From contig PBLV01000045.1 in the NCBI GenBank assembly GCA_002721895.1, positions 1 to 46,914 of the forward strand: a stretch of DNA of 46,914 nucleotides, in the 5' to 3' direction. Source of the DNA: Verrucomicrobiales bacterium (GTDB lineage: Bacteria > Verrucomicrobiota > Verrucomicrobiae > Limisphaerales > UBA1100). Both the position numbers and the translations under genes were made by a program. This document shows positions 26,999 through 45,191 of the stretch, one piece after another. Position 1 is the first letter of the stretch; every line of letters starts with the position of its first letter. The notes beneath the pieces are model-generated. The model worked only from the letters and a program-made list of their open reading frames with translations. It did not search any database and was not told where the DNA came from.

Positions 26999-29900
26999 TT
27001 TTCATCCTCTGCCCGCCGCAATCCCACCACGCCAAAGGCCAGCCCCGCCAGCGCGGCCAAGGCACTGACGAGCACGGGTTCCCGGGTGGGCTGATAGCGG
27101 AACACAACCTCGTGCCCTCCCGCGGATGGCGGCAGGTGTACGGCGCGCATGAGGAAATTGGCGCGCAACAATCGCGACGGCTGGCCGTTGACGAACACCT
27201 GCCAGTCCGGATTATGCCGATCGTTTAAAAGCAGGATAGTGTCCTTCTCTGTGGGTGGGGTTTTCAACTCGATGTACTTGGTGTGGTTGACCACATATTC
27301 CACGGGCCCCGGCGAGGCACCCCCAGACGGCTGGGGCAGTCCATTCTCAGCCAGCACCACCTGAGTCTGGGGATCAAATTCCGCGCTGGCCAACCGCTCA
27401 AGTGCCTCCCGATCGCTGGCTCCCTGTTTCCAATCGGCATACAATTTCGCGCGCGGCAATGCTCCCCGGAACTCAGTCACCGCAAACTTGCCATTGGTGG
27501 TTACGCTCGTGGAATAGGAGACTGGCAACTGCCCCGACTCCATGCCCGCTGGCACGGGCACGATGTTGAAATCGGCCAGAGGCCGGAAGCGCTGGCGACG
27601 GGGATCGAGAACAGCGTTGAGCGCGGAAGTGGCATTGGCATCTCCTAACCTCCTGCGCGCGGCCTGGGTCATGATGGAACTACCGGCATAACTGACAATA
27701 TAGCGGGTGGAAGTGAGTTCCAACTTCCGGAGAGCCAAGCGGACGGCTTCATTCACCTGGCTGGGCGCAACGGCCGGGGCAAGGTTTGTGCGAAATGCCG
27801 TGTCCGCCAGTTTGGGCCGGGGCTCCTGCACAATGTCCAGCATGGGCACGCCATGCCAAGGCATCTGATGTTGTGCCCACTCAACGCCATAGACACTGGC
27901 CAATTGCCCGGAAACTCCCTTTGTCCGGAGTTGCAGGCCTCTTTGCTGAATCTGCTGGGAACAAAACTGCATAAGTTCCGGATCATTGCTCGGATGGGAG
28001 GCTGAAAAGGACTGAACAAACTGTTGGAAATCTGCGGATGTCTGGCACTGCAAAATGCCGCGATGAAAATTCTCGGCAGCGACGGCCAAAGAGGCATTGG
28101 TGAACACTTGGTTCGCCGGTGGAAGGGGTGCCAAAAGCACATCCAAGACATGAGCCTCTAGCGAAGGTTGCACGACTTGAGGACCTCCTGGGGTGGGAAC
28201 GGCCAAGTTGAACCGCTGACCGTCCAGCAGAGCGGTTCGGCCCTGGGTTGATTGGCCGGCCAATTTCTCCAAAACAGGATTGGAGGGATATTTCTCGGAC
28301 AGATTCCAGTATTTGATGTACGGGCCATGAGCGGAGCCGAGATCCACCACCAGCAGAATTCCAAGTGCCGCCCATAAGCCCACCACACCCTTGGGCGACC
28401 ATCTCAAGCGCGGCACCGCCAACAACAAAAGCAAAGCCATCAACAGTAACAACAGCGTTCTCCAGATTTGTCCCATGCCAAAGGCCGCCATCGCTTTTGC
28501 ACCTTGTTCATCCGCCAGTCCCAATCCTCGCGATATATGCACGGCTACGTCTCCCTGCAACGTCATCAGCGCCAATGACAGCGCCGCCGCGGCCATGAAA
28601 AATACGCCGGAACCAATCGCCCAAGTCTTCTCAAAGCCTTCCCCAGGCTGAAACAGGTTGCTTAGCATTGAGCCGGCCTCCTTCACGCGGCGTCGGGTAT
28701 CCTCCAAGTAGAGCCGCGCAATCCCCTGCAGCCCCAAGCCAAACAGGATGACCAGCAACAGGCTGAAGGGCTGCATAAACTTGATGGGGTTCCGAATGTC
28801 ATTGAAGAAGGGCAACGGGTAAATCAGTTGATATAAAAATCCGTGCCGCCCCCATGCCAGTCCCAGTGAGATGATCGCCAGCGTGGCCGTAAACCAAATG
28901 AACCGGCATTCCACGCGAGAATAAGGCCCATCCTCCCGGCGGAACGAATTCACCAAGCCCCAAACCGCGACGACCAGAACCAGCACGCCCGCGTAAACGC
29001 CATATCCGGAATGATGCGGCATGCCCATGCGGTGCTCCGGCCAGCCAGGCGTTTGCCCCACGCTCCCCCAGTAACGCTGCTCGGGCGGGCTGTCCATCCG
29101 GTAACCAAACAAACCCGGCACAGCCAGTCGCGCGGTTTCCGCCTTGGGCAGGCTCCACTGGGTGGCGCCATTCCACTGGTGTTCCGCAGAAAATTCCTGA
29201 TTCACAATGCCTTGGGTTTGTGTTTCCCGAACGCTGGCAATGGTGTTCCAAGCCATGAGCCCGGCAAATACCGCCATCACAGCAACCACCGCCGCCCCTC
29301 GGCCCAACGCGAGCAGCGTCCAACCTTCACGGTTTAAAACAAGAAACACCGCATACGCCGCGGCATATAGACTGAAAAGTGCGCCAATGTCGTAGGCTTC
29401 CATGACTCCCTGGCCCACCGCCAATCCCGCCAACACCGCCAAGGGCCACCATCGGCGGCCCCGTCCGCCCACCAACGCCGCCAATGCGAGAAAGGTCATC
29501 CCCGCCGCCAGCGCCCGCACAGGCAATCCCCACGTGGCGTAAGTGAAGAAGGCCCCATTCAACGCCGCCGCCAGGGCGCCTAGCAGGCAAACCGCAGATC
29601 CACATCCCATTTGCCGAAAGAAAACCCAGGCACACATGCCCGCCAACCAAAGGCAACCGGGCGCATAAAAATTGGCAAACCAAACCGAGCCATCCGTTCC
29701 CAGCGCCATGCCCAGCAGGCCAACAAGCGTCGTGAAGCCAAGGGCCGCCGCCGGGTAGGCATAGCCGATCCACGTATGGTCCACCCAAGTGCCCCACCCC
29801 TCCCCGCCATTCTCGAAATAGTGTTTAATGAAGCCCAAGGGTGCGTCATTGGCAAACAGCACGCGGCCGACTTGAAGGCTTTCGCGAAACAATGCAACCA

Positions 29901-30084
29901 GCACCAGCGCCAACACGCCCGCCGCAAATGCCGCCGCGGGCCAACCCGGTCGCCCGGCAGGCATGGATTTTTTCGACGGTTCGGCTTCCAATGTGCCCGC
30001 CTCGGAAGGGGGTTCCGGCGATGGAGAATCCGTAGCTTTCTTCTTCCTGTTTCGTTTCGCGCGTGCCACGGGATTGAAAGTCAA
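26980..30084 (-). CDS. Large YfhO-type membrane protein, possible GT-C transferase
   Basis: The protein has up to 1034 residues. A cytoplasmic basic start (ARAKRNRKKK) leads into more than ten predicted membrane segments over residues 45-600, followed by a long exported part. The C-terminus has WQVFVNGQPSRLLRANFLMRAVHLPP and HEVVFRYQP, the hallmark ending of YfhO, and a final helix. YfhO proteins are thought to transfer sugars from lipid carriers in teichoic acid or surface glycans. The start is uncertain: the frame opens with TTG 30084, and GTG 30069 is an alternative; neither has a good SD. Two overlapping hairpins immediately precede it. It follows the DegT gene by 46 bases and closes the sugar operon; its 3' end overlaps the Nif3 gene. 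Confidence 0.8.
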   Translation of the reverse strand: MTFNPVARAKRNRKKKATDSPSPEPPSEAGTLEAEPSKKSMPAGRPGWPAAAFAAGVLALVLVALFRESLQVGRVLFANDAPLGFIKHYFENGGEGWGTWVDHTWIGYAYPAAALGFTTLVGLLGMALGTDGSVWFANFYAPGCLWLAGMCAWVFFRQMGCGSAVCLLGALAAALNGAFFTYATWGLPVRALAAGMTFLALAALVGGRGRRWWPLAVLAGLAVGQGVMEAYDIGALFSLYAAAYAVFLVLNREGWTLLALGRGAAVVAVMAVFAGLMAWNTIASVRETQTQGIVNQEFSAEHQWNGATQWSLPKAETARLAVPGLFGYRMDSPPEQRYWGSVGQTPGWPEHRMGMPHHSGYGVYAGVLVLVVAVWGLVNSFRREDGPYSRVECRFIWFTATLAIISLGLAWGRHGFLYQLIYPLPFFNDIRNPIKFMQPFSLLLVILFGLGLQGIARLYLEDTRRRVKEAGSMLSNLFQPGEGFEKTWAIGSGVFFMAAAALSLALMTLQGDVAVHISRGLGLADEQGAKAMAAFGMGQIWRTLLLLLMALLLLLAVPRLRWSPKGVVGLWAALGILLVVDLGSAHGPYIKYWNLSEKYPSNPVLEKLAGQSTQGRTALLDGQRFNLAVPTPGGPQVVQPSLEAHVLDVLLAPLPPANQVFTNASLAVAAENFHRGILQCQTSADFQQFVQSFSASHPSNDPELMQFCSQQIQQRGLQLRTKGVSGQLASVYGVEWAQHQMPWHGVPMLDIVQEPRPKLADTAFRTNLAPAVAPSQVNEAVRLALRKLELTSTRYIVSYAGSSIMTQAARRRLGDANATSALNAVLDPRRQRFRPLADFNIVPVPAGMESGQLPVSYSTSVTTNGKFAVTEFRGALPRAKLYADWKQGASDREALERLASAEFDPQTQVVLAENGLPQPSGGASPGPVEYVVNHTKYIELKTPPTEKDTILLLNDRHNPDWQVFVNGQPSRLLRANFLMRAVHLPPSAGGHEVVFRYQPTREPVLVSALAALAGLAFGVVGLRRAEDENHNPVG

Positions 30085-30130: not shown

Positions 30131-31258
30131 TCAGGCAACGCCCAACACTTCACACAATGTTCTCACCACGCGCTCCACTTGCGTCTGACTTAAACAGGAC
30201 GCCGAGGGAAGATTGATGCCCCATGGGGCAAGACGATGGCTCACCATATTGCGGCGCTGCGCGGCCAAGGCTTCCCTTCGCCCATCATACGCCGGCAGAC
30301 TGCTGAGGGGGTTGAAAAATGGCCGGCTATCGATGCCCTGTTCCGAGAGAGCGGCCATGAGTTTCTCCTTGGGCCAGCCCAGTGCGGGGTCAATTTGGGC
30401 TGTCACCATCCAGTAGGAGTTTTTCGTGCCGGCCGGTTCGTGGTTAAGCACGATCTCTCCCGTCTCATCAAGCGCCTCGTGGTACCAGCCAAAGATTTCA
30501 CGCTTGCGAGCCACCAACTCATCCGCGCGCTCCACCTGCGCCAGCCCAATCGCCGCCGCCACGGGGGCGAGCTTGTACTTAAAGGCCACCTCCTCGTTTT
30601 TAAAAAAAATGTCTCCCGGCGCGCGGCCATGGTCGCGCAACTGCATTACGCGTTCGAACACGGCATCATCATCCGTCACCAACATGCCACCCTCACCGGT
30701 GGTAAAGGTTTTTGATCCGTGAAAACTAAAGGCGGCCACATCACCCCATGCGCCGGCCATGCGTCCGTGGCATTCGCTGCCAATGGCCTCGGCGGCGTCC
30801 TCGATGATCTTCAGGCCATGCGAGTCAGCCAGTTGCCGAAGCGCGGTATAATCCGGCATGCCTCCGTAAAGGTCCACGGGCAGAATGGCGCGGGTACGGT
30901 CGGTCAGGCATGCTTCCACGGACGCAACGTCAAGGCACCAAGTTTGCTTGTCCACATCAGCGAACACCGCAGTGGCCTCCACGTAGTCCACCGGCGCGGC
31001 ACTGGCAATCCAGGTGATGTCGGGGACAATCACCTCATCCCCCGGGCCCACCCCTAGGGCCGCCAGCGCGAGATGCAATCCCGAGGTGCAGGAAGGCAGG
31101 CTCACCGCATGTTTCACCCCGACGTATTCGGCAAACGCCGCCTCGAATCGACGAGGGTAATCACCAGCGCGTTCGTACCAGCCATGCGCGGCCGCATCGG
31201 CAGCGTAGTCGATCTCCCGCTGGGAAATATCCGGACCGGCAATGGGAATGCGATCCAT
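30131..31258 (-). CDS. DegT/DnrJ/EryC1 sugar aminotransferase
   Basis: The protein has 375 residues. ATG 31258 was chosen; a TTG two codons earlier is in frame. The internal-aldimine lysine lies in FSFHGSKTFTTGEGGML, and PSCTSGLHLALAALGVGPGDEVIVPDITW, IIEDAAEAIGSECHG and FKYKLAPVAAAIGLAQVER are typical of the perosamine-synthase-like branch that aminates C4 of nucleotide 4-keto-6-deoxy sugars. The donor is usually glutamate. It begins two bases after the CmcI-like stop. With the CDP-glucose dehydratase upstream, a CDP-4-amino sugar is the simplest hypothesis; C3 amination is the alternative. Confidence 0.88.
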   Translation of the reverse strand: MDRIPIAGPDISQREIDYAADAAAHGWYERAGDYPRRFEAAFAEYVGVKHAVSLPSCTSGLHLALAALGVGPGDEVIVPDITWIASAAPVDYVEATAVFADVDKQTWCLDVASVEACLTDRTRAILPVDLYGGMPDYTALRQLADSHGLKIIEDAAEAIGSECHGRMAGAWGDVAAFSFHGSKTFTTGEGGMLVTDDDAVFERVMQLRDHGRAPGDIFFKNEEVAFKYKLAPVAAAIGLAQVERADELVARKREIFGWYHEALDETGEIVLNHEPAGTKNSYWMVTAQIDPALGWPKEKLMAALSEQGIDSRPFFNPLSSLPAYDGRREALAAQRRNMVSHRLAPWGINLPSASCLSQTQVERVVRTLCEVLGVA

Positions 31259-31260
31259 GG

Positions 31261-32046
31261 TCAACCCGCCACTCTTTTTAAAAATCCACCCGGCGCCACC
31301 GTAATCTGAAGCTTGTTTTCCATCGCGCAGTCGATCTCAAATTGGCCGTTCGATTTTAAAAACTCCGCGACCGCCGTGCGTGGGTTGTCGCCCTTGTCCC
31401 ACGGCCGATCCGGAAAAGAGCCGGTCGGCAGGTTTTCGATGAGCGTGTCAAACACCACGCAATAACTGCCGGGGGAAACCAATGGCGCGTAAGCTTCCAG
31501 TTCGGCGAGCACGTGGTCGTGGGTATGGTTGGAGTCCAGAAAAACCATCACGCGATCGTGTTCACGGGCAATTTCCCTGACCTGCTCGACGATCTCCGTC
31601 GCGATGCTTGATCCTTCGATCATCTGGATTCGATCCGCCAGAGGATGCCCTTCAATGGCCTTCCGATTGTGCGCGCGGATTTCAATATCGATGCCCAAAA
31701 CCTTCCGGCGCGATTGCCTCGGGTCCACCGTGCCTCCCTTGACATGTGCCTCTTCCAAATCCAACAAGGCCAGCAGGGAGGCACTGAGCACAAGCGAGCC
31801 ACCGTGGGCAATACCTGTCTCGATGACCAAATCCGGTTTGACCGACCAGATCAGTTCCTGCACCGCGCAAATGTCCTGCGGGTACTGAATAATCGGCCGT
31901 CCAAGCCAAGTGAAATTGTACAGGTAATTGCCACTATCACAGGCAGCCTGCATCCACTCCATGGATTTTGAAGCCAACCCCGGAGCATCACCCAACCGGC
32001 GGATGTTCTCCCGCACTTCACTAACAAATTGCTCTTCCGGCTCCAT
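31261..32046 (-). CDS. CmcI-like (cephalosporin hydroxylase family) protein
   Basis: The protein has 261 residues. ATG 32046 was chosen because the upstream extension reads through the end of the ATP-grasp gene. A Rossmann SAM-binding pattern is visible: LVIETGIAHGGSLVLSASLLALL, VLGIDIEIRAHNRKAIEGH, MIEGSSI and VMVFLDSNHTHDHVLAELEAYAPLVSPGSYCVV. The family includes CmcI of cephamycin synthesis and rhamnosyl O-methyltransferases of glycolipids; in glycan clusters it usually O-methylates a sugar. Start is ten bases after the ATP-grasp stop. Methyltransferase activity on a hexose is inferred from context. Confidence 0.82.
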   Translation of the reverse strand: MEPEEQFVSEVRENIRRLGDAPGLASKSMEWMQAACDSGNYLYNFTWLGRPIIQYPQDICAVQELIWSVKPDLVIETGIAHGGSLVLSASLLALLDLEEAHVKGGTVDPRQSRRKVLGIDIEIRAHNRKAIEGHPLADRIQMIEGSSIATEIVEQVREIAREHDRVMVFLDSNHTHDHVLAELEAYAPLVSPGSYCVVFDTLIENLPTGSFPDRPWDKGDNPRTAVAEFLKSNGQFEIDCAMENKLQITVAPGGFLKRVAG

Positions 32047-32056
32047 CGTCCGCAAA

Positions 32057-33040
32057 TTAATGCCCGGCGTCCACCCGGCTGTCGAACTCCAACTCCACCC
32101 GGTCCACCGCCACCCGCCGCGCCCGGCCTTTCCGGATTGTGGAAGCAGCCGGCTCCTGTCCGTCCAAATAAAAACCCAAAGCCATGGCCACCTCGTTATA
32201 GCCAAAGGCCGCGCGCATTGCCGTGGTGCTGGAAAATCTCGGATTTATTTCCAACAGCCACGTCCTCGCCCCGTCTTTGCGAAACTGATAATTGGTTGGC
32301 CCAACCGGCTGCAAACATCTCCCCAGCGCGACGGCTGCCCTAGCAACGTCATCATCATCCACCACCTCGGCAAATCGGGTGTGACCCGAGGTCGACAGCT
32401 CACGCCGGAAAATCAGCGGCGCCATGGATCGCCCATCACCCAAGCCGAACATCCCAACCGTGAACTCGCAATCATCCCTGCCCACGATTCGCTGAATCAT
32501 ATTGAATCCATCCGCGTGACGCACCAAATCCCCCGCATTTTCCAATCGCACTATCCCTCGCGAACCGGAGCCACATCTCGGCTTTAAAAGAAACGGCGGT
32601 GGCCCCAGCAGTTCCACACATTCCTCCCAGTCTTTTTCGCAGACCGTTGGGATCGCCCATTCTCCAGCAGCCGCAATCTGCAGCCACTTATCCCGCGCCA
32701 AGTCGATCAATTCCCGCGAATTCAAGCCCAGCCGGGTTGCGGTCAATTCTCCGCGATGAGCGTCCAAATAAAATACATCCTCATCAATCCCCGGCAAAAC
32801 AAGATCTGCCTCATCTGCAAGCCCGCGCCAAAAATCAAGATAAGCCTCACTTTCCTCCGGCACCCGCGGCTTAGGATAAAACTCATCGCAGGCATCGCGC
32901 CCGACACAACCCGGATTACGATCCACTCCCAAGACCTTCACCGGCCGGCCACTCGTCCGCAGTCCCTCAACAATCCCACACCCGATGACAGCCCCCACAC
33001 CCGTCACCATCACAGCGATCTCTTTTCGCTCCACGCTCAT
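32057..33040 (-). CDS. ATP-grasp ligase-like protein
   Basis: The protein has 327 residues. An N-terminal Rossmann-like region (MVTGVGAVIGCGIVEGL, VLGVDRNPGCV) precedes the ATP-grasp fold: DKWLQIAAAGEWAIPTV, FLLKPRCGSGSRGIVRL (ATP-binding Lys and loop) and WLLEINPRFSSTTAMRAAFG (Mg2+-binding Glu and Asn). ATP-grasp enzymes form amide or ester bonds through an acyl phosphate; this carbamoyl-phosphate-synthase-like subtype is common in surface polysaccharide clusters, with largely unknown substrates. The ATG overlaps the preceding stop by four bases. Joining an amino acid to the operon's amino sugar is a hypothesis. Confidence 0.85.
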   Translation of the reverse strand: MSVERKEIAVMVTGVGAVIGCGIVEGLRTSGRPVKVLGVDRNPGCVGRDACDEFYPKPRVPEESEAYLDFWRGLADEADLVLPGIDEDVFYLDAHRGELTATRLGLNSRELIDLARDKWLQIAAAGEWAIPTVCEKDWEECVELLGPPPFLLKPRCGSGSRGIVRLENAGDLVRHADGFNMIQRIVGRDDCEFTVGMFGLGDGRSMAPLIFRRELSTSGHTRFAEVVDDDDVARAAVALGRCLQPVGPTNYQFRKDGARTWLLEINPRFSSTTAMRAAFGYNEVAMALGFYLDGQEPAASTIRKGRARRVAVDRVELEFDSRVDAGH

Positions 33041-33909
33041 GTCACATCCAGCGGACCAAACGCACTCTCTGTGCCAGCATCACGAATCCGCGCCAGCCCT
33101 TCCCTCAGGGATATGGCGGGGGAAATTTCCAAGGCCTGAAACATCCCGGCATCTTTCGGATAGTTCACCCGCCGAAATGGTTTCTTGACGTCGCTGATCC
33201 GTGCTGTTCCGCCTCTTCCGAAGATGCCAAATGCCAACTCCGCAAGCTCCCCCATGTTTATTAACTCTTGATGAACCACCGGACATACGCCAGATGTACC
33301 TCTTTGTCCTGCCGTCAACATCAGCCGTGCCGCATCCTCTACATGAAGGAAATTCCGCGGCCCTTCCGAAGCCGGGAGATTTAAATCCAGCCCGGCCCCC
33401 GCGTACGCCACCACCCGTCCAAACCAAGCCTGATGTTTTACAGAACGGCCGTTTGTATCAAACAACTGCGGAAACCGAAGGGCACAAAACCTCCCTCCTC
33501 TGCGCATCATTCCCCACTTCAACAATGACTCCCCCTGCGCCTTCGAAAATCCATAACTTGTCATGCCTCCCGGCTCAAATTTTTCACAGGAGGAAAGGGT
33601 GCCCGCGCCAACCACCGAACGGCAATTCAACCGGTCCGCCAATTCCAAAACATGCAAACACCCGGCTGCGTTAATCTCAAAATTTGCCCGCACGCCTTCG
33701 GGACTGTCGTCACCAAACCCAGCCGCGCAGTGAAACAGCACATCCGCCACACTCTCCACCGCCTCCTTCAATCCATGACGCAAATCCAGATTAATCTCCG
33801 CGTCAGTATCCCTGCCCACGCGAATCACGGTTACGCCCGACTCGATCAGGATCGCGCACAGTTGTTCCCCAAGCATCGAGCCCGCCCCGGTCACCGCGAC
33901 CACTTTCAC
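33037..33909 (-). CDS. NAD-dependent epimerase/reductase
   Basis: The protein has 290 residues from GTG 33909, which overlaps the methyltransferase stop by four bases (GTGA), so the start is well supported. The N-terminal Rossmann motif is VTGAGSMLGEQLC, followed by LFHCAAGF, the catalytic SYGFSK (Tyr-x-x-x-Lys) and RNFLHVEDAARLML. The protein is an extended SDR. In a CDP-4-keto-6-deoxy sugar pathway it could be the 4-ketoreductase or an epimerase. The ATG of the ATP-grasp gene overlaps its stop by four bases. The substrate is not visible in the sequence. Confidence 0.87.
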   Translation of the reverse strand: MKVVAVTGAGSMLGEQLCAILIESGVTVIRVGRDTDAEINLDLRHGLKEAVESVADVLFHCAAGFGDDSPEGVRANFEINAAGCLHVLELADRLNCRSVVGAGTLSSCEKFEPGGMTSYGFSKAQGESLLKWGMMRRGGRFCALRFPQLFDTNGRSVKHQAWFGRVVAYAGAGLDLNLPASEGPRNFLHVEDAARLMLTAGQRGTSGVCPVVHQELINMGELAELAFGIFGRGGTARISDVKKPFRRVNYPKDAGMFQALEISPAISLREGLARIRDAGTESAFGPLDVT

Positions 33910-34625
33910 GCAGCCTCTGCCTCCAGCAACAAAGCCACGCACAAATCCGGAAAATCCACCCCAACCTCCATCATCGCCCTCAAATTCTCCTTGAAATCAG
34001 GCAGTGTCTTCAAAACCGGAAGCGGGAGAGGTTTGAGATACAATCCCTCCTCATGCGTCACCTTCCAACCGTGGTTTTCAACATCTGCCCGCAAGGTGTC
34101 ACGGCAATACTGGCGCTGGTGTCCCAAGGCCCTGTCGTTTTCGTTCAAGCTGTATATGTCGTCAATCTTGCCCAATTCCAAACCCATCCGGCGGTTGAGA
34201 GACTTGGCATTGGGCACAGCAATATACAAGCGGCCACCGGGAAGCAAAAGCGCGCGATAACGGTCAAGAATCAGTCCCGGATCATCCACATGCTCGAGAA
34301 TAAATCCCATGATAATCACGTCAAACCGGTCACCAGTCTCAAAGGTCTCGAACCACCCTTCCACAATTTCGCCGCTGAAATCCGGGTGAGAATCCCTGAA
34401 GCGCCGAATCATGACTGGGGATCCCTCAACCATCATGTGACGGTCACATGCCTCATTGAAAATTGAAGCCGTGTAGCCATGCCCGATCCCCAATTCCAAG
34501 AGTTGCGCGCAGTGCCCAAACCGGCCCACCACCCGCTTGGGATACCAATGCATTAGGAGATCATTCTCAATGGCCACCGGGGAATCGGGAGAATATTCGG
34601 ATGTAAACGCGTCCAGCTTGTTCAC
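33906..34625 (-). CDS. Class I SAM-dependent methyltransferase
   Basis: The protein has 239 residues. Start GTG 34625 overlaps the GT2 stop by four bases. LLELGIGHGYTASIF is motif I, then GEIVEGWFETFETGDRFDVIIMGFILEHVDDPGLILDRYRALLLPGGRLYIAVPN, a Methyltransf_11/23 pattern including the post-motif PGG. Such enzymes in glycan operons mostly O-methylate sugars or carry out C- or N-methylation. Residues after 150 (LGHQRQYCRDTL, LYLKPLPLPVL) are close to those of capsular methyltransferases. Substrate unknown. Confidence 0.87.
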   Translation of the reverse strand: MNKLDAFTSEYSPDSPVAIENDLLMHWYPKRVVGRFGHCAQLLELGIGHGYTASIFNEACDRHMMVEGSPVMIRRFRDSHPDFSGEIVEGWFETFETGDRFDVIIMGFILEHVDDPGLILDRYRALLLPGGRLYIAVPNAKSLNRRMGLELGKIDDIYSLNENDRALGHQRQYCRDTLRADVENHGWKVTHEEGLYLKPLPLPVLKTLPDFKENLRAMMEVGVDFPDLCVALLLEAEAA

Positions 34626-35593
34626 GGCCTTCGGAAATGACCCTGCCCAAGAACCCTCCGCAGGGCAACCGCCAAGTTACCCAAGCACCATGCGGGCAGG
34701 CCGGTGATTGCGCGAGTCGTTCGCAATGCCTCCGCACGGCGAACTGAATCCAAATCCTCAATGCCACCCAACAAAATCCGCGCCGCGGCAGCGACAAAAC
34801 ATCGCCGACGAAAATTCGCCATCCAACCCGATTTGCCGCGAATTTCATCCACCCGGGAAGTGGCTCTCCAGTAGTCCTGGATCAACTCCGCCGGACGCTC
34901 GCGGTTACGCGTGGTCGTAGTGGCCCCATGGCGACGATATTGGCAAAGTGCCTCGGGCACCTCAAAGAACCGTTTGTAATCACGGGTACACTCGGAAAAA
35001 AACACCGCATCCGCGCACTGAATAAACTCCAGCCGCAACCCAGCCGGCAGCGGGCGTCGATCCGTCTTCATCAACACCGCCGGCGTGCATATAGTTCGCA
35101 ACACCGCCTGAGCCGCCAAGAAATCCTCCATGGGAATTTCCCGTACCGGCGCGCCCGATTCAATCCGAAACGAATTCGCCAAGTCCCCTTCCTCCAAAAG
35201 ACGCCCCTCCTCATCGATCACCTCAAACGCAGAATACGACAGTGCATTTCCCTCCACCCCAACCAGGGGTTCAAGAACACGTTCCACAAAAGTCGGTTTC
35301 ACCAAGTCGTCCGCCGTCATCATGTGCAGAACATCCGTTTCCGACGCAAACTCCATCCCCAAGTTGAAACTAAGACCACTGTGCAGATGCTCTGCCGTCC
35401 GGCGATATTCCACCCCCTCCCCGGCAAACCCCTTCGCAATCTCTGCCGTGTCATCCGTCGAGCAATTATCCTGAACGATTAATCGGTCCGGCCGCCGTGT
35501 CTGCCCCAGCAAAGATCGCAGTGTCGCCTCAATAAAGGGTCCACCGTTGTAAACAGGAACCACCGTAGTGACATGAAACGATTCCCCAATCAA
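34622..35593 (-). CDS. Family 2 glycosyltransferase
   Basis: The protein has 323 residues from TTG 35593, chosen because it lies two bases after the WbqC stop and follows AAAGGGGG at a 5-base spacing. An extension upstream would read through the WbqC gene. The GT2 fold is shown by VTTVVPVYNGGPFIEATLRSLLGQTRRPDRLIVQDNCSTDDTAEIA and the DXD-like MTADDLVKPTFVE. It transfers a sugar from a nucleotide donor, probably during assembly of a surface glycan in the cytoplasm. The C-terminal third is basic and amphipathic, consistent with membrane association. Whether its donor is the operon's own CDP sugar is not visible. Confidence 0.88.
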   Translation of the reverse strand: MIGESFHVTTVVPVYNGGPFIEATLRSLLGQTRRPDRLIVQDNCSTDDTAEIAKGFAGEGVEYRRTAEHLHSGLSFNLGMEFASETDVLHMMTADDLVKPTFVERVLEPLVGVEGNALSYSAFEVIDEEGRLLEEGDLANSFRIESGAPVREIPMEDFLAAQAVLRTICTPAVLMKTDRRPLPAGLRLEFIQCADAVFFSECTRDYKRFFEVPEALCQYRRHGATTTTRNRERPAELIQDYWRATSRVDEIRGKSGWMANFRRRCFVAAAARILLGGIEDLDSVRRAEALRTTRAITGLPAWCLGNLAVALRRVLGQGHFRRP

Positions 35594-35595
35594 AA

Positions 35596-36315
35596 CTACC
35601 CCCTTTCCCACCTCAGGAATTCCCTCCAAGGAACCGTGCCAGACACAATAAACTCTCTTCCCGCGGGCCCACAATTTGCCACCAAATCAAGGCCCGTGAC
35701 ATATGGCGTAAACTCCCCATGCAACTGCGGATATTCCCGCTTTTCATAATCCATGTATTCCACTCTCACCCCAGCCGCCTCAAACGCCTCATGATCCAGA
35801 TAATTCTTGGCGCCATGACCTGTCACATAACGCTCCCCGTCCACCTTCTGGCAAAGCTTCAACACCCGTTCAGATCCGCCACCATTCACGCCAAGATCCG
35901 AAGATCGCATATCCTTTGGCATCATCCCAAAATAACCAGCCATATCGATCATGCTTGCAGTTCCCAAGCCCGACAGCGATTCGTGTGTCAAACTGAGCAC
36001 CGACTCCGCCAAATCTAACATTTCCCCCATGAAAGGTGCTGCCGCGTATGCCTGCTGAAGCGTAGCCAAATGCTTGCGCCGCCAACTACCAGACGCTGGC
36101 TGAACCTCATTGAGTTTATTCTTCATTGGGTGATCGGCCCTCGGAATAGTCAGCCACTGAACGCCTTGCGAAGTCTTCACCTGCACACGATTAAAAAAAC
36201 TCCCCTTTGAAAAATCTGCATCATCCAAACAAATAAACACATCGGCCAACGCCATCTGCTCCAGCATGCCGACCCATGGGAAGTACATGGGTTGCGATAT
36301 AACCACGGTTTTCAT
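35596..36315 (-). CDS. WbqC-family protein
   Basis: The protein has 239 residues. The N-terminus VVISQPMYFPWVGMLEQMALADVFICLDDADFSKGSFFNRVQVKT is the recognisable WbqC pattern, and the C-terminal YLDHEAFEAAGVRVEYMDYEKREYPQLHGEFTPYVTGLDLVANCG also matches. The name comes from an O-antigen gene; the enzymatic activity of the family is, to my knowledge, not firmly established. In glycan clusters it tends to accompany 4-aminotransferases, as here, hence an acyl or aminoacyl role is often proposed. It sits nine bases after the C-methyltransferase gene. Confidence 0.85.
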   Translation of the reverse strand: MKTVVISQPMYFPWVGMLEQMALADVFICLDDADFSKGSFFNRVQVKTSQGVQWLTIPRADHPMKNKLNEVQPASGSWRRKHLATLQQAYAAAPFMGEMLDLAESVLSLTHESLSGLGTASMIDMAGYFGMMPKDMRSSDLGVNGGGSERVLKLCQKVDGERYVTGHGAKNYLDHEAFEAAGVRVEYMDYEKREYPQLHGEFTPYVTGLDLVANCGPAGREFIVSGTVPWREFLRWERG

Positions 36316-36324
36316 TCCACCAGT

Positions 36325-37557
36325 TTAAACAAGTCTCATTTCTGGCAATGGAATCAAGAATCGGCCTCCCAATTCACGATACTCCGACTGCTGGGACTGG
36401 ATTTCGTCTGCAAAGTTCCAAGCTAACAATAATACAACATCCGGGCGTTTTTCCCGCAATGCACCCGGCTCCTTAATGGGCACACGCACCCCTGGCATTA
36501 GTCTTCCCTGTTTGTGTGGACTTCGGTCTGCCACAAAATCAATCTGTCTAGAATCCAGTCCGCAATAATTCATCAGGACCGCCCCTTTCGCCGCCGCTCC
36601 ATAGGCTGCCAATCGCTTCCCTTCCCCTCGCAACGATTCCACAAACTCTCGTAATTTCTTTCGGGTGTTCTGTGCACACTTGGCAAACCCATCATAAAAT
36701 GCGGTTGTTCCCACACCTATTTCCTCCTCATGCTCGCGCAGGATAGACACCGAATCATCCGCCGGGCAACCCTTGTGCCGGACAAATATCCGCAGTGATC
36801 CCCCATGCACTGACAGTTCCTCCACTTTGACAACCCGCAAGCCATGCCGCTCGAACAAGGGTTCCAGTGCAGTAAGCGTGAAGTAAAAAACATGCTCATG
36901 ATACACCGTGTCAAATTCCCCATAGGAAATCATTTTCGCCGCATGTGGAAATTCGAGGATTGCTGTCCCCGCATCACCCAATAAAACCCTCAAGGCTTCC
37001 CCAAAATCGTTGGGGTCAGGCACATGTGCAAACACATTGCAGGCGACGATCAAATCGGCCCGCTTCTCCTTGGCTAAATCACGTGCCAAGGCTGTGTTGA
37101 AAAAGTCCACCCTCGTCTCCACCCCTTTCTCCCTGGCCACTTGCGCCACGTTGCCCGCCGGTTCAATTCCCAAATGCGGTATCTCCGCCGCGGCAAAATG
37201 TCTGAGCAGATATCCATCATTGCTGGCGACTTCCACCACCCAGCTTTCCGCGCCAAGGCTGAATTCGTCCATATAGCGACGCGCACTTTCCTCTGCGTGC
37301 TTCAGCCATAAATCCGAATAGGAGGAAAAGTACACATACTCGCTGAAAAGATTCACCGGAGGGACAACATCCAAAATCTGCAACAACCAGCAATCCGTAC
37401 ACACTGCAAGCCGAAGAGGAAAGGACGGCTCCGGGTATTCCAAATCCTCCGGCCTTGGCAGGTTATTGGCCAATGGCTGTCTGCCAAGATCCAGAACCAA
37501 GCATCCCGCATTTGAACAACACGATCGGCAATGAAATTTGTCCAAAACGACACTCAT
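36325..37557 (-). CDS. Sugar C-methyltransferase (TylCIII/NovU-like)
   Basis: The protein has 410 residues, the normal length of the nucleotide-sugar C-methyltransferase family. The N-terminal zinc-binding region has CRSCC and CTDCW. The middle methyltransferase has EVASNDGYLLRHFAAAEIPHLGIEPAGNVA and VYHEHVFYFTLTALEPLFERHGL, the latter containing the catalytic-region Glu/His pattern of the family. The C-terminal third (YGAAAKGAVLMNYCGLDSRQIDFVADRSPHKQGRLMPG) is the second Rossmann domain. These enzymes C3- or C5-methylate dTDP- or CDP-keto-deoxy sugars after epimerisation. The ATG shares one base with the stop of the epimerase-like gene, which fits the reaction order. Confidence 0.9.
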   Translation of the reverse strand: MSVVLDKFHCRSCCSNAGCLVLDLGRQPLANNLPRPEDLEYPEPSFPLRLAVCTDCWLLQILDVVPPVNLFSEYVYFSSYSDLWLKHAEESARRYMDEFSLGAESWVVEVASNDGYLLRHFAAAEIPHLGIEPAGNVAQVAREKGVETRVDFFNTALARDLAKEKRADLIVACNVFAHVPDPNDFGEALRVLLGDAGTAILEFPHAAKMISYGEFDTVYHEHVFYFTLTALEPLFERHGLRVVKVEELSVHGGSLRIFVRHKGCPADDSVSILREHEEEIGVGTTAFYDGFAKCAQNTRKKLREFVESLRGEGKRLAAYGAAAKGAVLMNYCGLDSRQIDFVADRSPHKQGRLMPGVRVPIKEPGALREKRPDVVLLLAWNFADEIQSQQSEYRELGGRFLIPLPEMRLV

Positions 37558-38111
37558 TAAAATGGACTGGAAAACTCACTCCACTTTGGCATGGCAGCGT
37601 CCTTTTCCGAAAGCCTGGGTGAATCCATCGGCCACTTAATCCCTACCTCGGGATCATCCCATCGCAAACCTGCCGCGTGGTCCGGAGAATAGATTTCATC
37701 CATCTTGTACAAGAGTTGGACATCATCTGTAAGTGTGCAGAAACCATGGGCGCACCCCATAGGCACATAGACTTGATTCATTTGTGCTGCGCTCAACTGC
37801 ACCGAGTACCACCTGCCAAAAGTAGCCGAACTCCTTCGCAAATCCACGATCACATCAAACACGATTCCGCAAACGGCTCGGATGAGCTTCGTTTCAGCAA
37901 AAGGCGGGGTTTGGTAGTGCAGACCGCGCACAGTCCCACATGTCCGCGTCCATGACAGGCTCTCCTGCACCCACTCATTAGTCAATCCGTGGTCGCAAAA
38001 CCAATCAGCATCATAGATGCGAGCGAAGCTGCCTCGCTCATCGAAATGCGGAACGGGGACAATTTCAAACGCACCATCGATCGGCAGGGGTTTCAATTCC
38101 ATGGCACTCAT
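37557..38111 (-). CDS. dTDP-4-dehydrorhamnose 3,5-epimerase-like protein (RfbC family)
   Basis: The protein has 184 residues, the usual RmlC length. Start ATG 38111 overlaps the rfbG stop by four bases; the longer frame upstream was rejected. The RmlC cupin is visible in FDERGSFARIYDADWF, TVRGLHYQTPP (catalytic His), VDLRRSSATFG and YVPMGCAHGFCTL. The family epimerises C3 and/or C5 of 4-keto-6-deoxy nucleotide sugars. Here the substrate is more likely CDP-4-keto-6-deoxyglucose made by rfbF and rfbG. Since a C-methyltransferase follows, it may act chiefly at C3 or C5 to prepare the methylation. Confidence 0.88.
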   Translation of the reverse strand: MSAMELKPLPIDGAFEIVPVPHFDERGSFARIYDADWFCDHGLTNEWVQESLSWTRTCGTVRGLHYQTPPFAETKLIRAVCGIVFDVIVDLRRSSATFGRWYSVQLSAAQMNQVYVPMGCAHGFCTLTDDVQLLYKMDEIYSPDHAAGLRWDDPEVGIKWPMDSPRLSEKDAAMPKWSEFSSPF

Positions 38112-39184
38112 TTTGTCCAAGGATTGCCCGCCATTTCGGCCCCGTCGCAATAAAGTCTAATTTGCTCCTGGGAAAAAGCCCGCACATCCTCTGCGTGGTC
38201 TTGGTGCCGGGAACGATACCAGACAGCCGTTTGTTCCACTGCGGTTTTCCACGTCCAAGTTGGCCTCCATCCCAGTTCTTTTTTTGCGAGGGCGATGGAT
38301 AACGTCAATCGCGCTGCTTCCGGTGGTGGATTATTCTCCGCCATGTTTTCCCACTCGCCTGGCCAGTGTTTCAAAAACTCATCCATTAATTGCTGCACGG
38401 ATTGGATCGAGTCTGGCTCAGGCCCAAAATTATAAGCCGGTGAAGCTGTCTCCATCCGGCTCCCCAGCCACAGATATCCTGACAGGCAATCCAACACATG
38501 TTGCCAAGGCCGCACGGCTTCTGGATTGCGCACCGGCACGGGCTGACCTCTCTGCAGAGCTCGTACCGCATCCGGCACAATCCGGTCAGGCGCATAGTCC
38601 CCGCCTCCAATCACGTTGCCAGCCCGAGCCGTGGCAACCAGAGCCAATTTTTCATTCCTGTTGAAGAAAGACCGACGCCAACTGTGCGCCACCAGTTCCG
38701 CCGCCGCTTTACTTGATGAGTATACATCCGCGCCACCCAGTGCATCTTCCTCGGAATGCTGCCGATCACTTTCATTGGCGTAGCACTTGTCGCTGGTGAC
38801 CACCAGCACGGGGGTCTTCAAGCCCAACCGGCGTACCGACTCCAGCACATACGCGGTGCCCATCACATTTGTTGCCATCGTCTCCAGTGGCTCCTCGTAG
38901 GAGTGTCGGACCAACGGTTGAGCAGCCAGATGAAAAACGAAGTCAGGTTTAACCTTTCGTATCACCGCCTTCACATCCTCAAAATTCCGAATATTACAGT
39001 GGGCTTCGGACGCGAATGTGCCTGGGGCGATGATCTCGTGCAGGCTTGGTTCCGTGGGCGGCTCCAGCCCAACTCCGTGGACTATCGCCCCGAGTTCTTG
39101 CAACCACAGTGACAACCACCCACCCTTGAACCCCGTGTGCCCGGTCACCAGCACGCGGCGGTTCCTGTAGTAATCCCCAAACAT
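38108..39184 (-). CDS. rfbG: CDP-glucose 4,6-dehydratase
   Basis: The protein has 358 residues, matching RfbG/DdhB. It removes water from CDP-glucose to give CDP-4-keto-6-deoxyglucose using bound NAD+. The SDR fold shows VTGHTGFKGGWLSLWLQELGA, FHLAAQPLVRHSYEEPLETMATNVMGT, VTSDKCYAN and the catalytic YSSSK. RGQPVPVRNPEAVRPWQHVLDCLSGYLWLG is typical of CDP-glucose dehydratases rather than dTDP-type RmlB. It starts three bases after the rfbF stop. There is no CDP-6-deoxy-3,4-glucoseen reductase or E1 dehydratase (ddhC/rfbH) in the window, so 3-deoxy sugars such as tyvelose are unlikely products. Confidence 0.93.
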   Translation of the reverse strand: MFGDYYRNRRVLVTGHTGFKGGWLSLWLQELGAIVHGVGLEPPTEPSLHEIIAPGTFASEAHCNIRNFEDVKAVIRKVKPDFVFHLAAQPLVRHSYEEPLETMATNVMGTAYVLESVRRLGLKTPVLVVTSDKCYANESDRQHSEEDALGGADVYSSSKAAAELVAHSWRRSFFNRNEKLALVATARAGNVIGGGDYAPDRIVPDAVRALQRGQPVPVRNPEAVRPWQHVLDCLSGYLWLGSRMETASPAYNFGPEPDSIQSVQQLMDEFLKHWPGEWENMAENNPPPEAARLTLSIALAKKELGWRPTWTWKTAVEQTAVWYRSRHQDHAEDVRAFSQEQIRLYCDGAEMAGNPWTK

Positions 39185-39187
39185 CGC

Positions 39188-39961
39188 CTACCAAGTTTTC
39201 CACGGCGCCCTACCGCTCGACCACATGTTCTCCAACAATTGCTGTTCGCGATAGGTGTCCATGCACTGCCAAAAGTCATCGTGGCAAAACGCCTTCAATT
39301 GGCCGGAGGCCGACAGAGCTTTCATCGGCTCTTGTTCCAAAATGCAGTCGTCCCCGGAAAGGTAATTAATGATCCCTCGGTTAAACACCATGAAGCCGCC
39401 GTTGATATAGGCGTCTTCTTGGTTGGGTTTCTCGCGGAAACCGGTGATCGTAAAATCCTTGAGCGACAGTTCGCCATAGCGGCCCGCGGGTTTAACCGCT
39501 GTGATCGTTGCCAAAGTCCCATGCTGTTGGTGAAACTCAATCGAGGCGTTGATGTCAACGTCTGACAAACCATCACCGTATGTAAACAGGAAGGTTTCAT
39601 CCGGGACGTGTTTCATGGCTCTCCGCAGACGTCCACCCGTCTGGGTTTCCTGGCCAGTATCGAGCAAGGTCACAGTCCAGTCCTCGATGCCTTCGTTGTC
39701 GTGAAAATCAATCTTGGACTGTGGCCCCATTTGCAGCGTGACATCGTGGGTATGCCAAAGGAAATTGCGGAAGTAATCCTTGATGACTTCTCCCTTGTAG
39801 CCGAGACACAGGATGAAGTCCTTGTGCCCATGGCTCGCATAGTGCTTCATGATGTGCCACAGGATGGGCTGCGGCCCCACAGACACCATGGGCTTGGGGC
39901 GGAATTCCGTTTCCTCCCGCAGACGCGTGCCCAAGCCGCCGCATAGAATCACCACCTTCAT
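39188..39961 (-). CDS. rfbF: Glucose-1-phosphate cytidylyltransferase
   Basis: The protein has 257 residues, the length of RfbF/DdhA. It makes CDP-glucose from CTP and glucose-1-phosphate. The nucleotidyltransferase signature is VVILCGGLGTRLREETEFRPKPMVSVG, followed by LCLGYKGEVIKDYF, the YGDGLSDVD metal site and YINGGFMVFNRGIINYL, with EKP of FREKPNQE. The ATG at 39961 sits 13 codons inside the longer frame and matches family starts. It is the first gene of the 13-kb operon. The 96 bases between it and the small lipoprotein gene on the other strand should contain the operon promoter, which I could not identify confidently. Confidence 0.94.
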   Translation of the reverse strand: MKVVILCGGLGTRLREETEFRPKPMVSVGPQPILWHIMKHYASHGHKDFILCLGYKGEVIKDYFRNFLWHTHDVTLQMGPQSKIDFHDNEGIEDWTVTLLDTGQETQTGGRLRRAMKHVPDETFLFTYGDGLSDVDINASIEFHQQHGTLATITAVKPAGRYGELSLKDFTITGFREKPNQEDAYINGGFMVFNRGIINYLSGDDCILEQEPMKALSASGQLKAFCHDDFWQCMDTYREQQLLENMWSSGRAPWKTW

Positions 39962-40257: not shown

Positions 40258-41283
40258 GTGCGTGATATTCTTTTCAGGTTGTTTCCGCCGGACGGGCTGG
40301 CACGCAGGGCCGTCAATGGCCTGATGCCGGTGGCTGACGTTTTGCTTCTTCCGTGCACGTTTCTGGCCTCCTCTCTGCTTTGCGCCATTCGAATGGCGGG
40401 CGTTGAACGATTCCGCGCCGCACGCTGGGCGTTCAGGAAAACCGGTGTGTTTCCCGTGCGCGACCAATACTACGAGCCGCTGGTCAACCCAAGCCACCTC
40501 CACCGGTCGCTGGACGAGCCACGCGAACTGCCCGGCATCAAATGGTCCGACACCGAACAACTGGAGCTGTTGCAAAAATTTGACTACGCCAACGAATTGC
40601 TTGCCTTTCCTTGGGCACCCGACGGCAAGGGCGGCTTCTATTATAGCAACCCCGCCTTCGGCCCGGGCGATGCCGATGTGCTCTACAGCCTCGTGCGCCA
40701 TCTAAAGCCACGCCGTTTCATTGAAATTGGCAGCGGTCACTCAACGCTTCTCACCCGAAAAGCCCTCCAGCGCAACCGCGAGGAAAACCCGGATTGCCGT
40801 TGCCGCCATATCTGCATCGAGCCCTACGAGGCGCCTTGGCTGGAACAGTTGGAGGTGGAATTGATCCGCGAACGGCTGGAACGGATGGATCTCAAGCTCT
40901 TCACCGAGTTGCAGGCCGGCGACGTTTTGTTCATTGACTCCTCGCACGTCATTCGACCGCAAGGCGATGTCCTCCGCGAGTACCTCGAAATCCTGCCCCG
41001 CCTTGCCCCGGGCGTTTGGGTGCATGTGCATGACATCCACACACCCCGCGACTATCCCCCGGCCTGGGTGAAGGACGAGGTTAAACTATGGAACGAACAG
41101 TATCTGCTGGAGGCATTTTTATCACACAACAACGATTTTCGGGTGGCCTGGATGATGGGGCACATGTTTCACACCCATCAAGAAGCCGTCCTGGCCGGGT
41201 GCCCGGCCCTTCGGCGCGCGCGAAAGCAAGGCCATAACGCCTGTGGCGGAAGCCTCTGGCTGGAAAGATTGGGTCAGGGTTAG
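40258..41283 (+). CDS. Class I SAM methyltransferase, Methyltransf_24-like
   Basis: The protein has 341 residues from GTG 40258. The first 50 residues include a hydrophobic segment (ADVLLLPCTFLASSLLC) that could be a membrane anchor. The methyltransferase fold shows RFIEIGSGHSTLLTRKAL (motif I), HICIEPYEAPWLEQL, DVLFIDSSHVIRPQGDVLREYLEILPRLAPGVWVHVHDI, typical of Methyltransf_24. It begins 50 bases after the small lipoprotein gene. Its TAG stop overlaps the TAA stop of the convergent GT4 gene. A role in methylating a surface glycan is inferred from neighbours. Confidence 0.82.
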   Translation: MRDILFRLFPPDGLARRAVNGLMPVADVLLLPCTFLASSLLCAIRMAGVERFRAARWAFRKTGVFPVRDQYYEPLVNPSHLHRSLDEPRELPGIKWSDTEQLELLQKFDYANELLAFPWAPDGKGGFYYSNPAFGPGDADVLYSLVRHLKPRRFIEIGSGHSTLLTRKALQRNREENPDCRCRHICIEPYEAPWLEQLEVELIRERLERMDLKLFTELQAGDVLFIDSSHVIRPQGDVLREYLEILPRLAPGVWVHVHDIHTPRDYPPAWVKDEVKLWNEQYLLEAFLSHNNDFRVAWMMGHMFHTHQEAVLAGCPALRRARKQGHNACGGSLWLERLGQG

Positions 41284-43153: not shown

Positions 43154-43253
43154 GCGCGCCGGAGCCAACCAACCCGGCTCAACCCCGGCAAGTCATTGTT
43201 GTGGACAACCCAAGGTTGACCCCGCCCCGGCGAGTGCAAAGCTCGGCGTGCCG

Positions 43254-43937: not shown

Positions 43938-43941
43938 GGCC

Positions 43942-45027: not shown

Positions 45028-45191
45028 CCCGCGCCAAATTGCCCCCCAACCCCCTCCAACGCAAGAATCGAAGCCCAACATCCCCAACCCACGCAGGCTC
45101 GGAGGCCTTCACTACGGCAGGTCGGGAAGTCTGCGATACCGGATTTGGTGAAATTGCCAAATTTTTTTATTTTTCTTCGTTTTTCTGAAAA

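What the first reader, a model, noticed from the sequence alone, without database searches (positions are those of the whole stretch)
30131..39961. CDP-sugar operon combining C-methylation, 4-amination and ATP-grasp/WbqC chemistry
Eleven genes with gaps of at most 10 bases or 1-4 base overlaps run from rfbF to a DegT aminotransferase. rfbF and rfbG would make CDP-4-keto-6-deoxyglucose; an RmlC-like epimerase and a C-methyltransferase follow in reaction order. There is no ddhC/rfbH, so the 3-deoxy CDP sugars are not the product. A DegT aminotransferase, ATP-grasp enzyme and WbqC protein then suggest an amino sugar with an amide-linked substituent. I know of no described CDP sugar with all these features.
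Basis: partly seen in the sequence, partly recalled or inferred. Interest (0 to 1): 0.8.

Follow-up and report, generated by a model that had tools for sequence, protein, structure and literature searches.

The report
CDP-linked branched amino-sugar operon
Eleven tightly packed bacterial genes look like a kit for making a rare branched amino sugar for the cell surface; the same core kit recurs across many phyla, and a related version sits in the glycolipid gene cluster of Mycobacterium kansasii, which makes such a sugar, kansosamine.

Summary
In detail: eleven same-strand genes at 30131-39961, rfbF to DegT, with gaps up to 10 bases or overlaps of 1-4. rfbF, rfbG and RmlC pass curated cut-offs; no rfbH-type dehydrase. 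The doubtful point was whether DegT works on the CDP sugar. Comparative evidence says so: of 80 loci with close DegT relatives (13 named phyla, archaea included), 63 carry the C-methyltransferase nearby, 56 rfbF, 69 the CmcI-like methyltransferase, 2 a GDP-mannose dehydratase; of 18 control loci with other DegTs, none has the C-methyltransferase. Acylation-type modules are swapped between the core genes (hexapeptide acyltransferase; PhyH-methyltransferase-GNAT-WbqC; ATP-grasp-SDR-methyltransferase). The M. kansasii-complex lipooligosaccharide locus, identified by published primers, encodes rfbF-rfbG-RmlC-C-methyltransferase-DegT-ATP-grasp-SDR-methyltransferase; M. kansasii makes N-acylkansosamine, a 3-C-methyl-4-amino-4,6-dideoxy sugar (structure recalled). 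Best reading: a kansosamine-type CDP sugar, N-acylated and O-methylated. WbqC is predicted to share the fold of BshC, which couples an amino acid to an amino sugar. No product was tested.

The parts
39188..39961 (-). rfbF, glucose-1-phosphate cytidylyltransferase
   Evidence: TIGR02623 360.8 bits, cut-off 300.25
38108..39184 (-). rfbG, CDP-glucose 4,6-dehydratase
   Evidence: TIGR02622 426.3 bits, cut-off 278.45; YSSSK and TSDKCY motifs in the sequence
37557..38111 (-). RmlC-like 3,5-epimerase; inferred to invert C5 (C3 too if it acts before methylation)
   Evidence: TIGR01221 167.5 bits, cut-off 155.75; RGLHYQ and LLYK regions align with solved RmlC
36325..37557 (-). sugar 3-C-methyltransferase (CMT)
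   Evidence: PF08421 and PF08484; closest solved relatives MtmC 4rv9 and TcaB9 3ndi, their Y-x-E-H kept at 219-222
35596..36315 (-). WbqC family protein; proposed amide-bond-forming enzyme
34622..35593 (-). family 2 glycosyltransferase
   Evidence: PF00535 69.1 bits; start codon TTG inferred
33906..34625 (-). SAM-dependent methyltransferase, candidate O-methylation of the acyl group
   Evidence: PF13489 56.4 bits; close relatives in L020 and L078, which also have the SDR and ATP-grasp
33037..33909 (-). SDR (extended type), proposed acyl or sugar tailoring
   Evidence: PF01370 58 bits; Y-x3-K kept
32057..33040 (-). ATP-grasp enzyme, proposed carboxylate-amine ligase for the N-acyl substituent
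31261..32046 (-). CmcI/rhamnosyl O-methyltransferase-like, proposed 2-O-methylation
   Evidence: PF04989 318.1 bits; NF045824 92.2 bits, below cut-off 400; present in 69 of 80 related loci
30131..31264 (-). DegT/perosamine-synthetase-like sugar aminotransferase, proposed C4 amination
   Evidence: PF01041 365.7 bits; PLP lysine K184 invariant; closest solved relative perosamine synthetase 3bn1

Best explanation
The operon makes a CDP-activated 4-amino-4,6-dideoxy-3-C-methyl hexose of the kansosamine type, N-acylated and O-methylated, and feeds it to a surface glycan. Steps: rfbF makes CDP-glucose; rfbG gives CDP-4-keto-6-deoxyglucose; CMT puts a methyl on C3 next to the ketone; RmlC inverts C5 (C3 is quaternary after methylation), giving an L sugar; DegT aminates C4; the CmcI-like enzyme O-methylates, probably O2; WbqC and the ATP-grasp enzyme attach a carboxylic acid to the 4-amine, and the SDR and second methyltransferase tailor that acyl group; GT2 transfers the sugar. 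Supported by family membership and conserved linkage: the CDP-glucose route and the recurring core rfbF-rfbG-CMT-RmlC-CmcI-DegT. Inferred: positions and stereochemistry of methylation, order of steps, the acyl group, and the roles of WbqC, ATP-grasp, SDR and the O-methyltransferases.
For: DegT clade linkage: in 80 loci, CMT 63, rfbF 56, rfbG 55, RmlC 57, CmcI-like 69; at least 3 of the 4 core genes in 53 of 80, and in 46 of the 56 with enough flank. 14 loci lack all four; of 9 of their genomes searched, 7 have an rfbG over the cut-off elsewhere, 5 of these 7 next to a CMT. Controls: 18 loci with other DegTs have 0 CMT and 2 rfbF; gmd-like genes (E<=1e-60) in 2 of 80 loci. DegT tree: clade loci and M. 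kansasii-type DegTs on one side of a branch (SH-aLRT 89), controls on the other. M. kansasii-complex LOS locus: both published MKAN27435 primers match exactly in L123 and L127, next to rfbF-rfbG-RmlC-CMT-DegT-ATP-grasp-SDR-TylF-type methyltransferase and, further on, a PKS, in the tag order of Table 1 of PMC4403928; its rfbF and rfbG pass the CDP cut-offs. Window CMT is 44%, DegT 45%, rfbG 48% identical to that locus. Acyl-type modules swap between the core genes. WbqC-BshC structural match; two papers list WbqC beside or near a DegT aminotransferase elsewhere.
Against: No product, substrate or expression data. The kansosamine structure is recalled; the 1984 paper is not held, and the gene-to-sugar link in M. 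kansasii is by elimination. The M. kansasii-type DegT is a sister branch at 45% identity, in a quick tree with midpoint root; its RmlC falls just short of the RmlC cut-off (149.4 vs 155.75); its ATP-grasp is only about 27% identical to the window's and its SDR carries an extra N-terminal domain; L123 and L125-L127 have no CmcI-like gene in the fetched stretch (L124 does). DegT's closest solved relative is a GDP-perosamine synthetase. In 17 loci the rfbG-like protein is distant from the window's, and 4 of 4 scanned miss the rfbG cut-off, though 10 of 10 of their rfbF scanned pass. The CmcI-like protein fails the rhamnosyl O-methyltransferase cut-off. WbqC has no sequence match to BshC. 9 of 53 core loci show none of the acyl-type modules. 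CMT occurs without DegT: 14 fetched Verrucomicrobiota CMT loci have 0 DegT. The loci were chosen by similarity to DegT, and relatedness among them is not corrected for.
Confidence: 0.66

Rival explanations
1. Two pathways share one operon: rfbF-rfbG-RmlC-CMT make a CDP 3-C-methyl sugar without nitrogen, while DegT, ATP-grasp and WbqC act on a second nucleotide sugar (for example GDP-4-keto-6-deoxymannose, giving perosamine).
For: DegT is closest in the PDB to GDP-perosamine synthetase; CMT with rfbF also occurs without any DegT (11 of 14 loci), so a nitrogen-free C-methyl sugar route probably exists.
Against: The DegT clade sits with rfbF and CMT across phyla and with gmd-like genes in only 2 of 80 loci; no second dehydratase lies in the operon; two control loci have rfbF, an rfbG-like gene and a DegT next to the clade without CMT (L133, L136), which again ties this DegT type to CDP sugars.
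Confidence: 0.17
2. The pathway is as proposed up to the CDP 4-amino-3-C-methyl sugar, but the substituent on the amine is an amino acid or an N-acylated amino acid put on by WbqC (as BshC puts cysteine on a glucosamine), with the ATP-grasp adding a further residue, not a methoxy-acyl group as in kansosamine.
For: WbqC model matches BshC; WbqC and ATP-grasp occur together in the window, L020 and L078, which would be redundant if both made the same bond; PylC, an amino-acid ligase, is among the closest folds of the ATP-grasp.
Against: No sequence link of WbqC to BshC; the accompanying methyltransferase and SDR fit an O-methylated hydroxy-acyl group at least as well; the M. kansasii locus, where I saw an ATP-grasp but no WbqC, makes an N-acyl, not an aminoacyl, sugar (structure recalled).
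Confidence: 0.12
3. The operon is a coincidental assembly of glycan genes with no single product, as in many O-antigen clusters built by gene exchange.
For: Gene order differs between carriers, acyl-type modules are swapped, and the GT2 has moved relative to other Verrucomicrobiota.
Against: The core set recurs in distant phyla and CMT is absent from the control DegT loci; gaps and overlaps are those of one transcript.
Confidence: 0.05

Closest known systems
Mycobacterium kansasii N-acylkansosamine / lipooligosaccharide locus (MKAN27425-27485, PMC4403928)
   Same: rfbF, rfbG, RmlC, CMT, DegT, ATP-grasp, SDR and further methyltransferases in one run; rfbF and rfbG pass the CDP cut-offs.
   Different: Different phylum; order RmlC-CMT-DegT-ATP-grasp-SDR there; a DSP-like domain on its SDR, a TylF-type methyltransferase where the window has a CmcI-like one; no WbqC seen; 44-48% identity in CMT, DegT and rfbG. 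The parts of the paper I read do not assign these genes to kansosamine.
TDP-sugar 3-C-methyltransferases MtmC (mycarose) and TcaB9 (kijanose) (pathways recalled)
   Same: Same family and catalytic motif.
   Different: TDP-linked 2,6-dideoxy sugars of antibiotics (recalled); here the neighbours are CDP-glucose enzymes and no 2-deoxygenation gene was seen in the operon.
CDP-3,6-dideoxyhexose pathway (abequose, paratose, tyvelose, ascarylose; recalled)
   Same: rfbF and rfbG.
   Different: No RfbH/ddhC dehydrase: DegT keeps the PLP lysine and misses the RfbH cut-off.
GDP-perosamine synthetase
   Same: Closest solved relative of DegT, full-length match.
   Different: Genomic partners are CDP-glucose enzymes; gmd-like genes in 2 of 80 loci.
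BshC, bacillithiol synthase (cysteine-adding; function recalled)
   Different: WbqC is under half the length of the BshC chain (239 vs 540) and shows no sequence match.

Membership tests
CDP-glucose / CDP-4-keto-6-deoxyglucose pathway | rfbF and rfbG over curated cut-offs | tested here: met
   360.8 vs 300.25 and 426.3 vs 278.45 bits
CDP-3,6-dideoxyhexose pathway | RfbH/ddhC-type PLP dehydrase lacking the catalytic lysine | tested here: not met
   DegT 157.6 bits to PRK15407, cut-off 423; K184 invariant
Sugar C-methyltransferase (TylC3/TcaB9/MtmC type) | Zn-binding, SAM and C-terminal domains with catalytic Y-x-E-H (catalytic role recalled) | tested here: met
Sugar C-methyltransferase (TylC3/TcaB9/MtmC type) | Acts on a CDP-linked 4-ketosugar | not testable with these tools
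   needs assay; rfbF near CMT in many loci
DegT sugar 4-aminotransferase | DegT fold with PLP lysine | tested here: met
   PF01041 365.7 bits, K184
LegC, PseC, ArnB, DesI, WecE aminotransferases | score over the curated cut-off | tested here: not met
   best LegC 278.7 vs 420
Kansosamine-type cluster (as in M. kansasii LOS) | rfbF, rfbG, RmlC, CMT, DegT together | tested here: met
   window and L123-L127
Kansosamine-type cluster (as in M. kansasii LOS) | orthologous ATP-grasp and DSP-SDR acyl module | tested here: inconclusive
   ATP-grasp related at about 27% identity; SDR related by profile (prob 96.1, 18% identity) but without the N-terminal domain
Kansosamine-type cluster (as in M. kansasii LOS) | product is a 3-C-methyl-4-amino-4,6-dideoxy sugar | not testable with these tools
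   no product data
Rhamnosyl O-methyltransferase (NF045824) | score over the curated cut-off | tested here: not met
   92.2 vs 400 bits; broader PF04989 met
WbqC family PF08889 | profile match | tested here: met
   214.7 bits, cut-off 21.3
BshC-like ligases | shared fold | tested here: met
BshC-like ligases | sequence similarity to a solved BshC | tested here: not met
   no PDB sequence match at E<=1

The most novel reading that the evidence does not exclude
A previously unrecognised, near pan-bacterial (and archaeal) CDP-sugar family: a recurring core makes CDP-4-amino-4,6-dideoxy-3-C-methyl-hexose and interchangeable acyl modules decorate the amine, kansosamine being one product; within it WbqC is a small BshC-like enzyme that forms an amide bond on the amino sugar.
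Probability: 0.4. Interest if true: 0.75.

Novelty: new variant of a known kind. Interest (0 to 1): 0.62.

Why it matters
It gives a testable CDP-linked route to branched amino sugars, offers a gene assignment for kansosamine, which I found unassigned in the papers I could search, and gives the WbqC family, called functionally uncharacterized in PMC5532660 (passage), a concrete chemical hypothesis. If right, gene order alone would predict a branched amino sugar in the surface glycans of many uncultured bacteria, and the swapped acyl modules would be a readable code for its substituent.

Tried and rejected
Considered and rejected: 3,6-dideoxy CDP sugars (no RfbH); DegT as a LegC, PseC, ArnB, DesI or WecE enzyme (below cut-off); GDP-perosamine as the default (gmd-like genes in 2 of 80 loci).

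Led nowhere or little: paper searches on WbqC with ATP-grasp (none); WbqC alone (12 listed; I read the matching passages of five: they call it uncharacterized or possibly O-antigen-related, and two list it beside or near a DegT; the other seven were seen as a listing only); CDP-4-keto-6-deoxyglucose or C-methyltransferase (listing of 20 of 832), C-methyl/virenose/CDP terms (listing of 6), 4-amino/3-C-methyl/CDP-glucose terms (listing of 2), 3-C-methyl and methoxypropionyl terms (listing of 18, passages of PMC12961483, none) and CDP-glucose terms (listing of 1). PMC4703794 holds kansosamine only in its reference list. The window's own genome is not held, so other nucleotide-sugar genes of this organism could not be checked. 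WbqC (E<=1) and ATP-grasp (E<=0.001) have no sequence match in the PDB.

Limits: locus annotation rests on phmmer with the window's proteins (later with representatives from other loci) and, for the counts, bit thresholds that I chose; stop-to-stop frames were used, not gene models. The 80 loci are the best 80 of 191 relatives found. The module test used the 53 of 80 loci with at least 3 core genes; 27 were left out: hexapeptide enzyme with WbqC 0 of 53 (p 0.0005), with ATP-grasp 0 of 53 (p 0.005), WbqC with ATP-grasp 1 of 53 (p 0.06); 9 of 53 have none of these modules; the p values ignore relatedness. In all 80 the hexapeptide enzyme is never with either, and WbqC and ATP-grasp are together in 2, L020 and L078, as in the window, so those two are not shown to exclude each other. 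Five to ten first-look candidates per genome were scored in the DegT genome searches. Control loci were 6.8-20 kb long.
Full report
What is there. Eleven same-strand genes at 30131-39961 encode, in order of transcription, rfbF, rfbG, an RmlC-like epimerase, a sugar C-methyltransferase (CMT), a WbqC protein, a family 2 glycosyltransferase, a SAM methyltransferase, an SDR, an ATP-grasp enzyme, a CmcI/rhamnosyl O-methyltransferase-like protein and a DegT aminotransferase. Gaps are at most 10 bases, overlaps 1-4. rfbF, rfbG and RmlC pass their curated cut-offs. CMT is closest in the PDB to MtmC and TcaB9 and keeps their Y-x-E-H motif. DegT keeps the PLP lysine and is not RfbH.

Does DegT belong to the CDP pathway? 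I collected 80 loci encoding close DegT relatives (52-76% identity, the best 80 of 191). They come from 13 named phyla including archaea (labels; many are metagenome bins, whose labels may err). Within the fetched flanks CMT is found in 63 of 80, rfbF in 56, rfbG in 55, RmlC in 57 and the CmcI-like gene in 69; at least three of the four core genes are present in 53 of 80, and in 46 of 56 with enough flank. Fourteen loci lack all four; in ten of these the piece is under 9 kb or DegT lies within 0.6 kb of an edge, in four (L018, L044, L076, L079) it does not. Of nine of the fourteen genomes searched, seven have rfbG elsewhere over the cut-off, five of those seven next to a CMT. Only 2 of 80 loci have a gmd-like gene at E<=1e-60.

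A weak spot: in 17 loci the rfbG-like protein scores only 96-135 bits to the window's. Four scanned match the CDP-glucose dehydratase model best but miss its cut-off (186-213 vs 278.45). Sixteen of the 17 have rfbF, and ten of ten rfbF scanned pass the cytidylyltransferase cut-off, so these loci still point to CDP.

Controls. In 396 genomes from the phylum of L073 (Actinomycetota), 9 had a DegT match at E<=1e-100, and in 248 genomes of a genus reached through PPE-family content (taken as Mycobacterium) 21 had one at E<=1e-70. The ten best of these 21 were looked at over 14-20 kb: CMT and rfbF lie close to DegT in nine of ten, not in L129. The other 11, and 7 of the 9 above, make 18 control loci: CMT in 0, rfbF in 2 (L133, L136). 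The nineteenth locus of that call, L150, is a clade member with CMT, rfbF, RmlC and the CmcI-like gene. In a quick DegT tree with midpoint root, 92 rows (the window, the 80 loci, L150, and the ten mycobacterial ones, L129 included) form one side of a branch (SH-aLRT 89), with the L133/L136 pair next and the other controls further out. In reverse, 15 of 194 genomes from the Verrucomicrobiota have a CMT (E<=1e-70) but only 1, the centre genome itself, has the clade DegT at E<=1e-150; one CMT locus from each of the other 14 was fetched: 11 have rfbF, 0 a DegT. So rfbF-rfbG-CMT-RmlC is a wider module, and the DegT would divert its product to an amino sugar. A CMT tree mixes DegT-linked and unlinked members.

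Swapped acyl modules. Between the core genes I saw three recurring sets: a hexapeptide acyltransferase (17 of 53 core loci); PhyH dioxygenase with GNAT and WbqC, usually with a further methyltransferase (10 of 53; WbqC in 16 in all); and ATP-grasp with SDR, usually with a methyltransferase (12 of 53). Nine of 53 show none of these; four of the nine have another methyltransferase type. The hexapeptide enzyme co-occurs with WbqC or ATP-grasp in none of the 80; WbqC and ATP-grasp co-occur in L020, L078 and the window. In Verrucomicrobiota the same chromosomal place (flanked by the window's 1034-aa protein, a Nif3-like gene and an arginine-decarboxylase-like gene, the last two names recalled) carries the PhyH-GNAT-WbqC set in L001, L002, L011 and L042, and the ATP-grasp set with WbqC in the window. 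Such exchange between acyltransferase-type sets is what one expects if all act on the same amine; this is inference.

Link to a known sugar. The only paper found that discusses kansosamine in its text (PMC4403928; abstract, passages, methods, results and references read) reports that M. kansasii LOS-IV to VII contain fucose and N-acylkansosamine, and its Table 1 lists MKAN27440 as a glucose-1-phosphate cytidylyltransferase, 27445 as an epimerase/dehydratase, 27450 as a rhamnose epimerase and 27475 as a methyltransferase, all without M. marinum orthologues. In what I read the paper does not tie these to kansosamine. Both its MKAN27435 primers match exactly at the ends of one reading frame in L123 and L127. 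Next to that frame in L123 lie rfbF, rfbG, RmlC, CMT, DegT, ATP-grasp, an SDR and a TylF-type methyltransferase, then an opposite-strand methyltransferase and part of a polyketide synthase: if tags step by five, just enough genes for 27440 to 27485. One mismatch: the frame lies on the strand opposite to rfbF together with the epimerase, whereas the table marks only the epimerase with c. rfbF and rfbG there score 466.7 and 484.2 bits to the CDP models; RmlC scores 149.4, just under its cut-off of 155.75. Kansosamine as 4-amino-4,6-dideoxy-3-C-methyl-2-O-methyl-L-mannose with an N-2-methoxypropionyl group is recalled (Hunter 1984, cited; not held). By elimination among the LOS sugars named, it is the only one that would need a C-methyltransferase and an aminotransferase.

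Verdict. The sugar class is probably known from M. kansasii; the CDP route, its breadth and the WbqC idea appear new within what I could search.

Noticed in passing
L039:7206-8456, L043:7192-8433, L057:12236-13492, L062:13364-14602, L064:6046-7284, L123:12461-13765: The SDR of the ATP-grasp module outside the window has an N-terminal domain of about 125 residues with a CX5R motif (such as CCDxGISRS), like a dual-specificity phosphatase; two such proteins scanned (L014, L123) gave no Pfam match there.
   Followed up: partly
L009:5720-6799, L013:5358-6695, L020:1625-2821, L061:3061-4083 and 13 more loci: rfbG-like dehydratases scoring only 96-135 bits to the window's rfbG (17 loci); four scanned match TIGR02622 best but below its cut-off. 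Possibly a separate CDP-glucose dehydratase subfamily.
   Followed up: partly
L133 and L136: rfbF, rfbG-like and a DegT next to the clade without CMT: perhaps a CDP 4-amino sugar without the C-methyl branch.
   Followed up: no
window 45429-46631: 400-aa protein with a C-terminal VHL beta domain match (32.3 bits, cut-off 21), a domain best known from animals (recalled).
   Followed up: no
window 26980-30084: 1034-aa protein directly downstream of DegT, same strand, no Pfam match at 1e-5, found at the same place in other Verrucomicrobiota; may belong to the same transcript.
   Followed up: partly
window 40258-45087: Upstream of rfbF: two GT4-type glycosyltransferases and methyltransferases, partly conserved in L001, L002, L006, L007 and L011, suggesting a larger glycan locus.
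   Followed up: partly
L130, L131, L132: Three genomes of the mycobacterial genus carry CMT, rfbF and DegT side by side but no clear rfbG in the 15-20 kb looked at.
   Followed up: no
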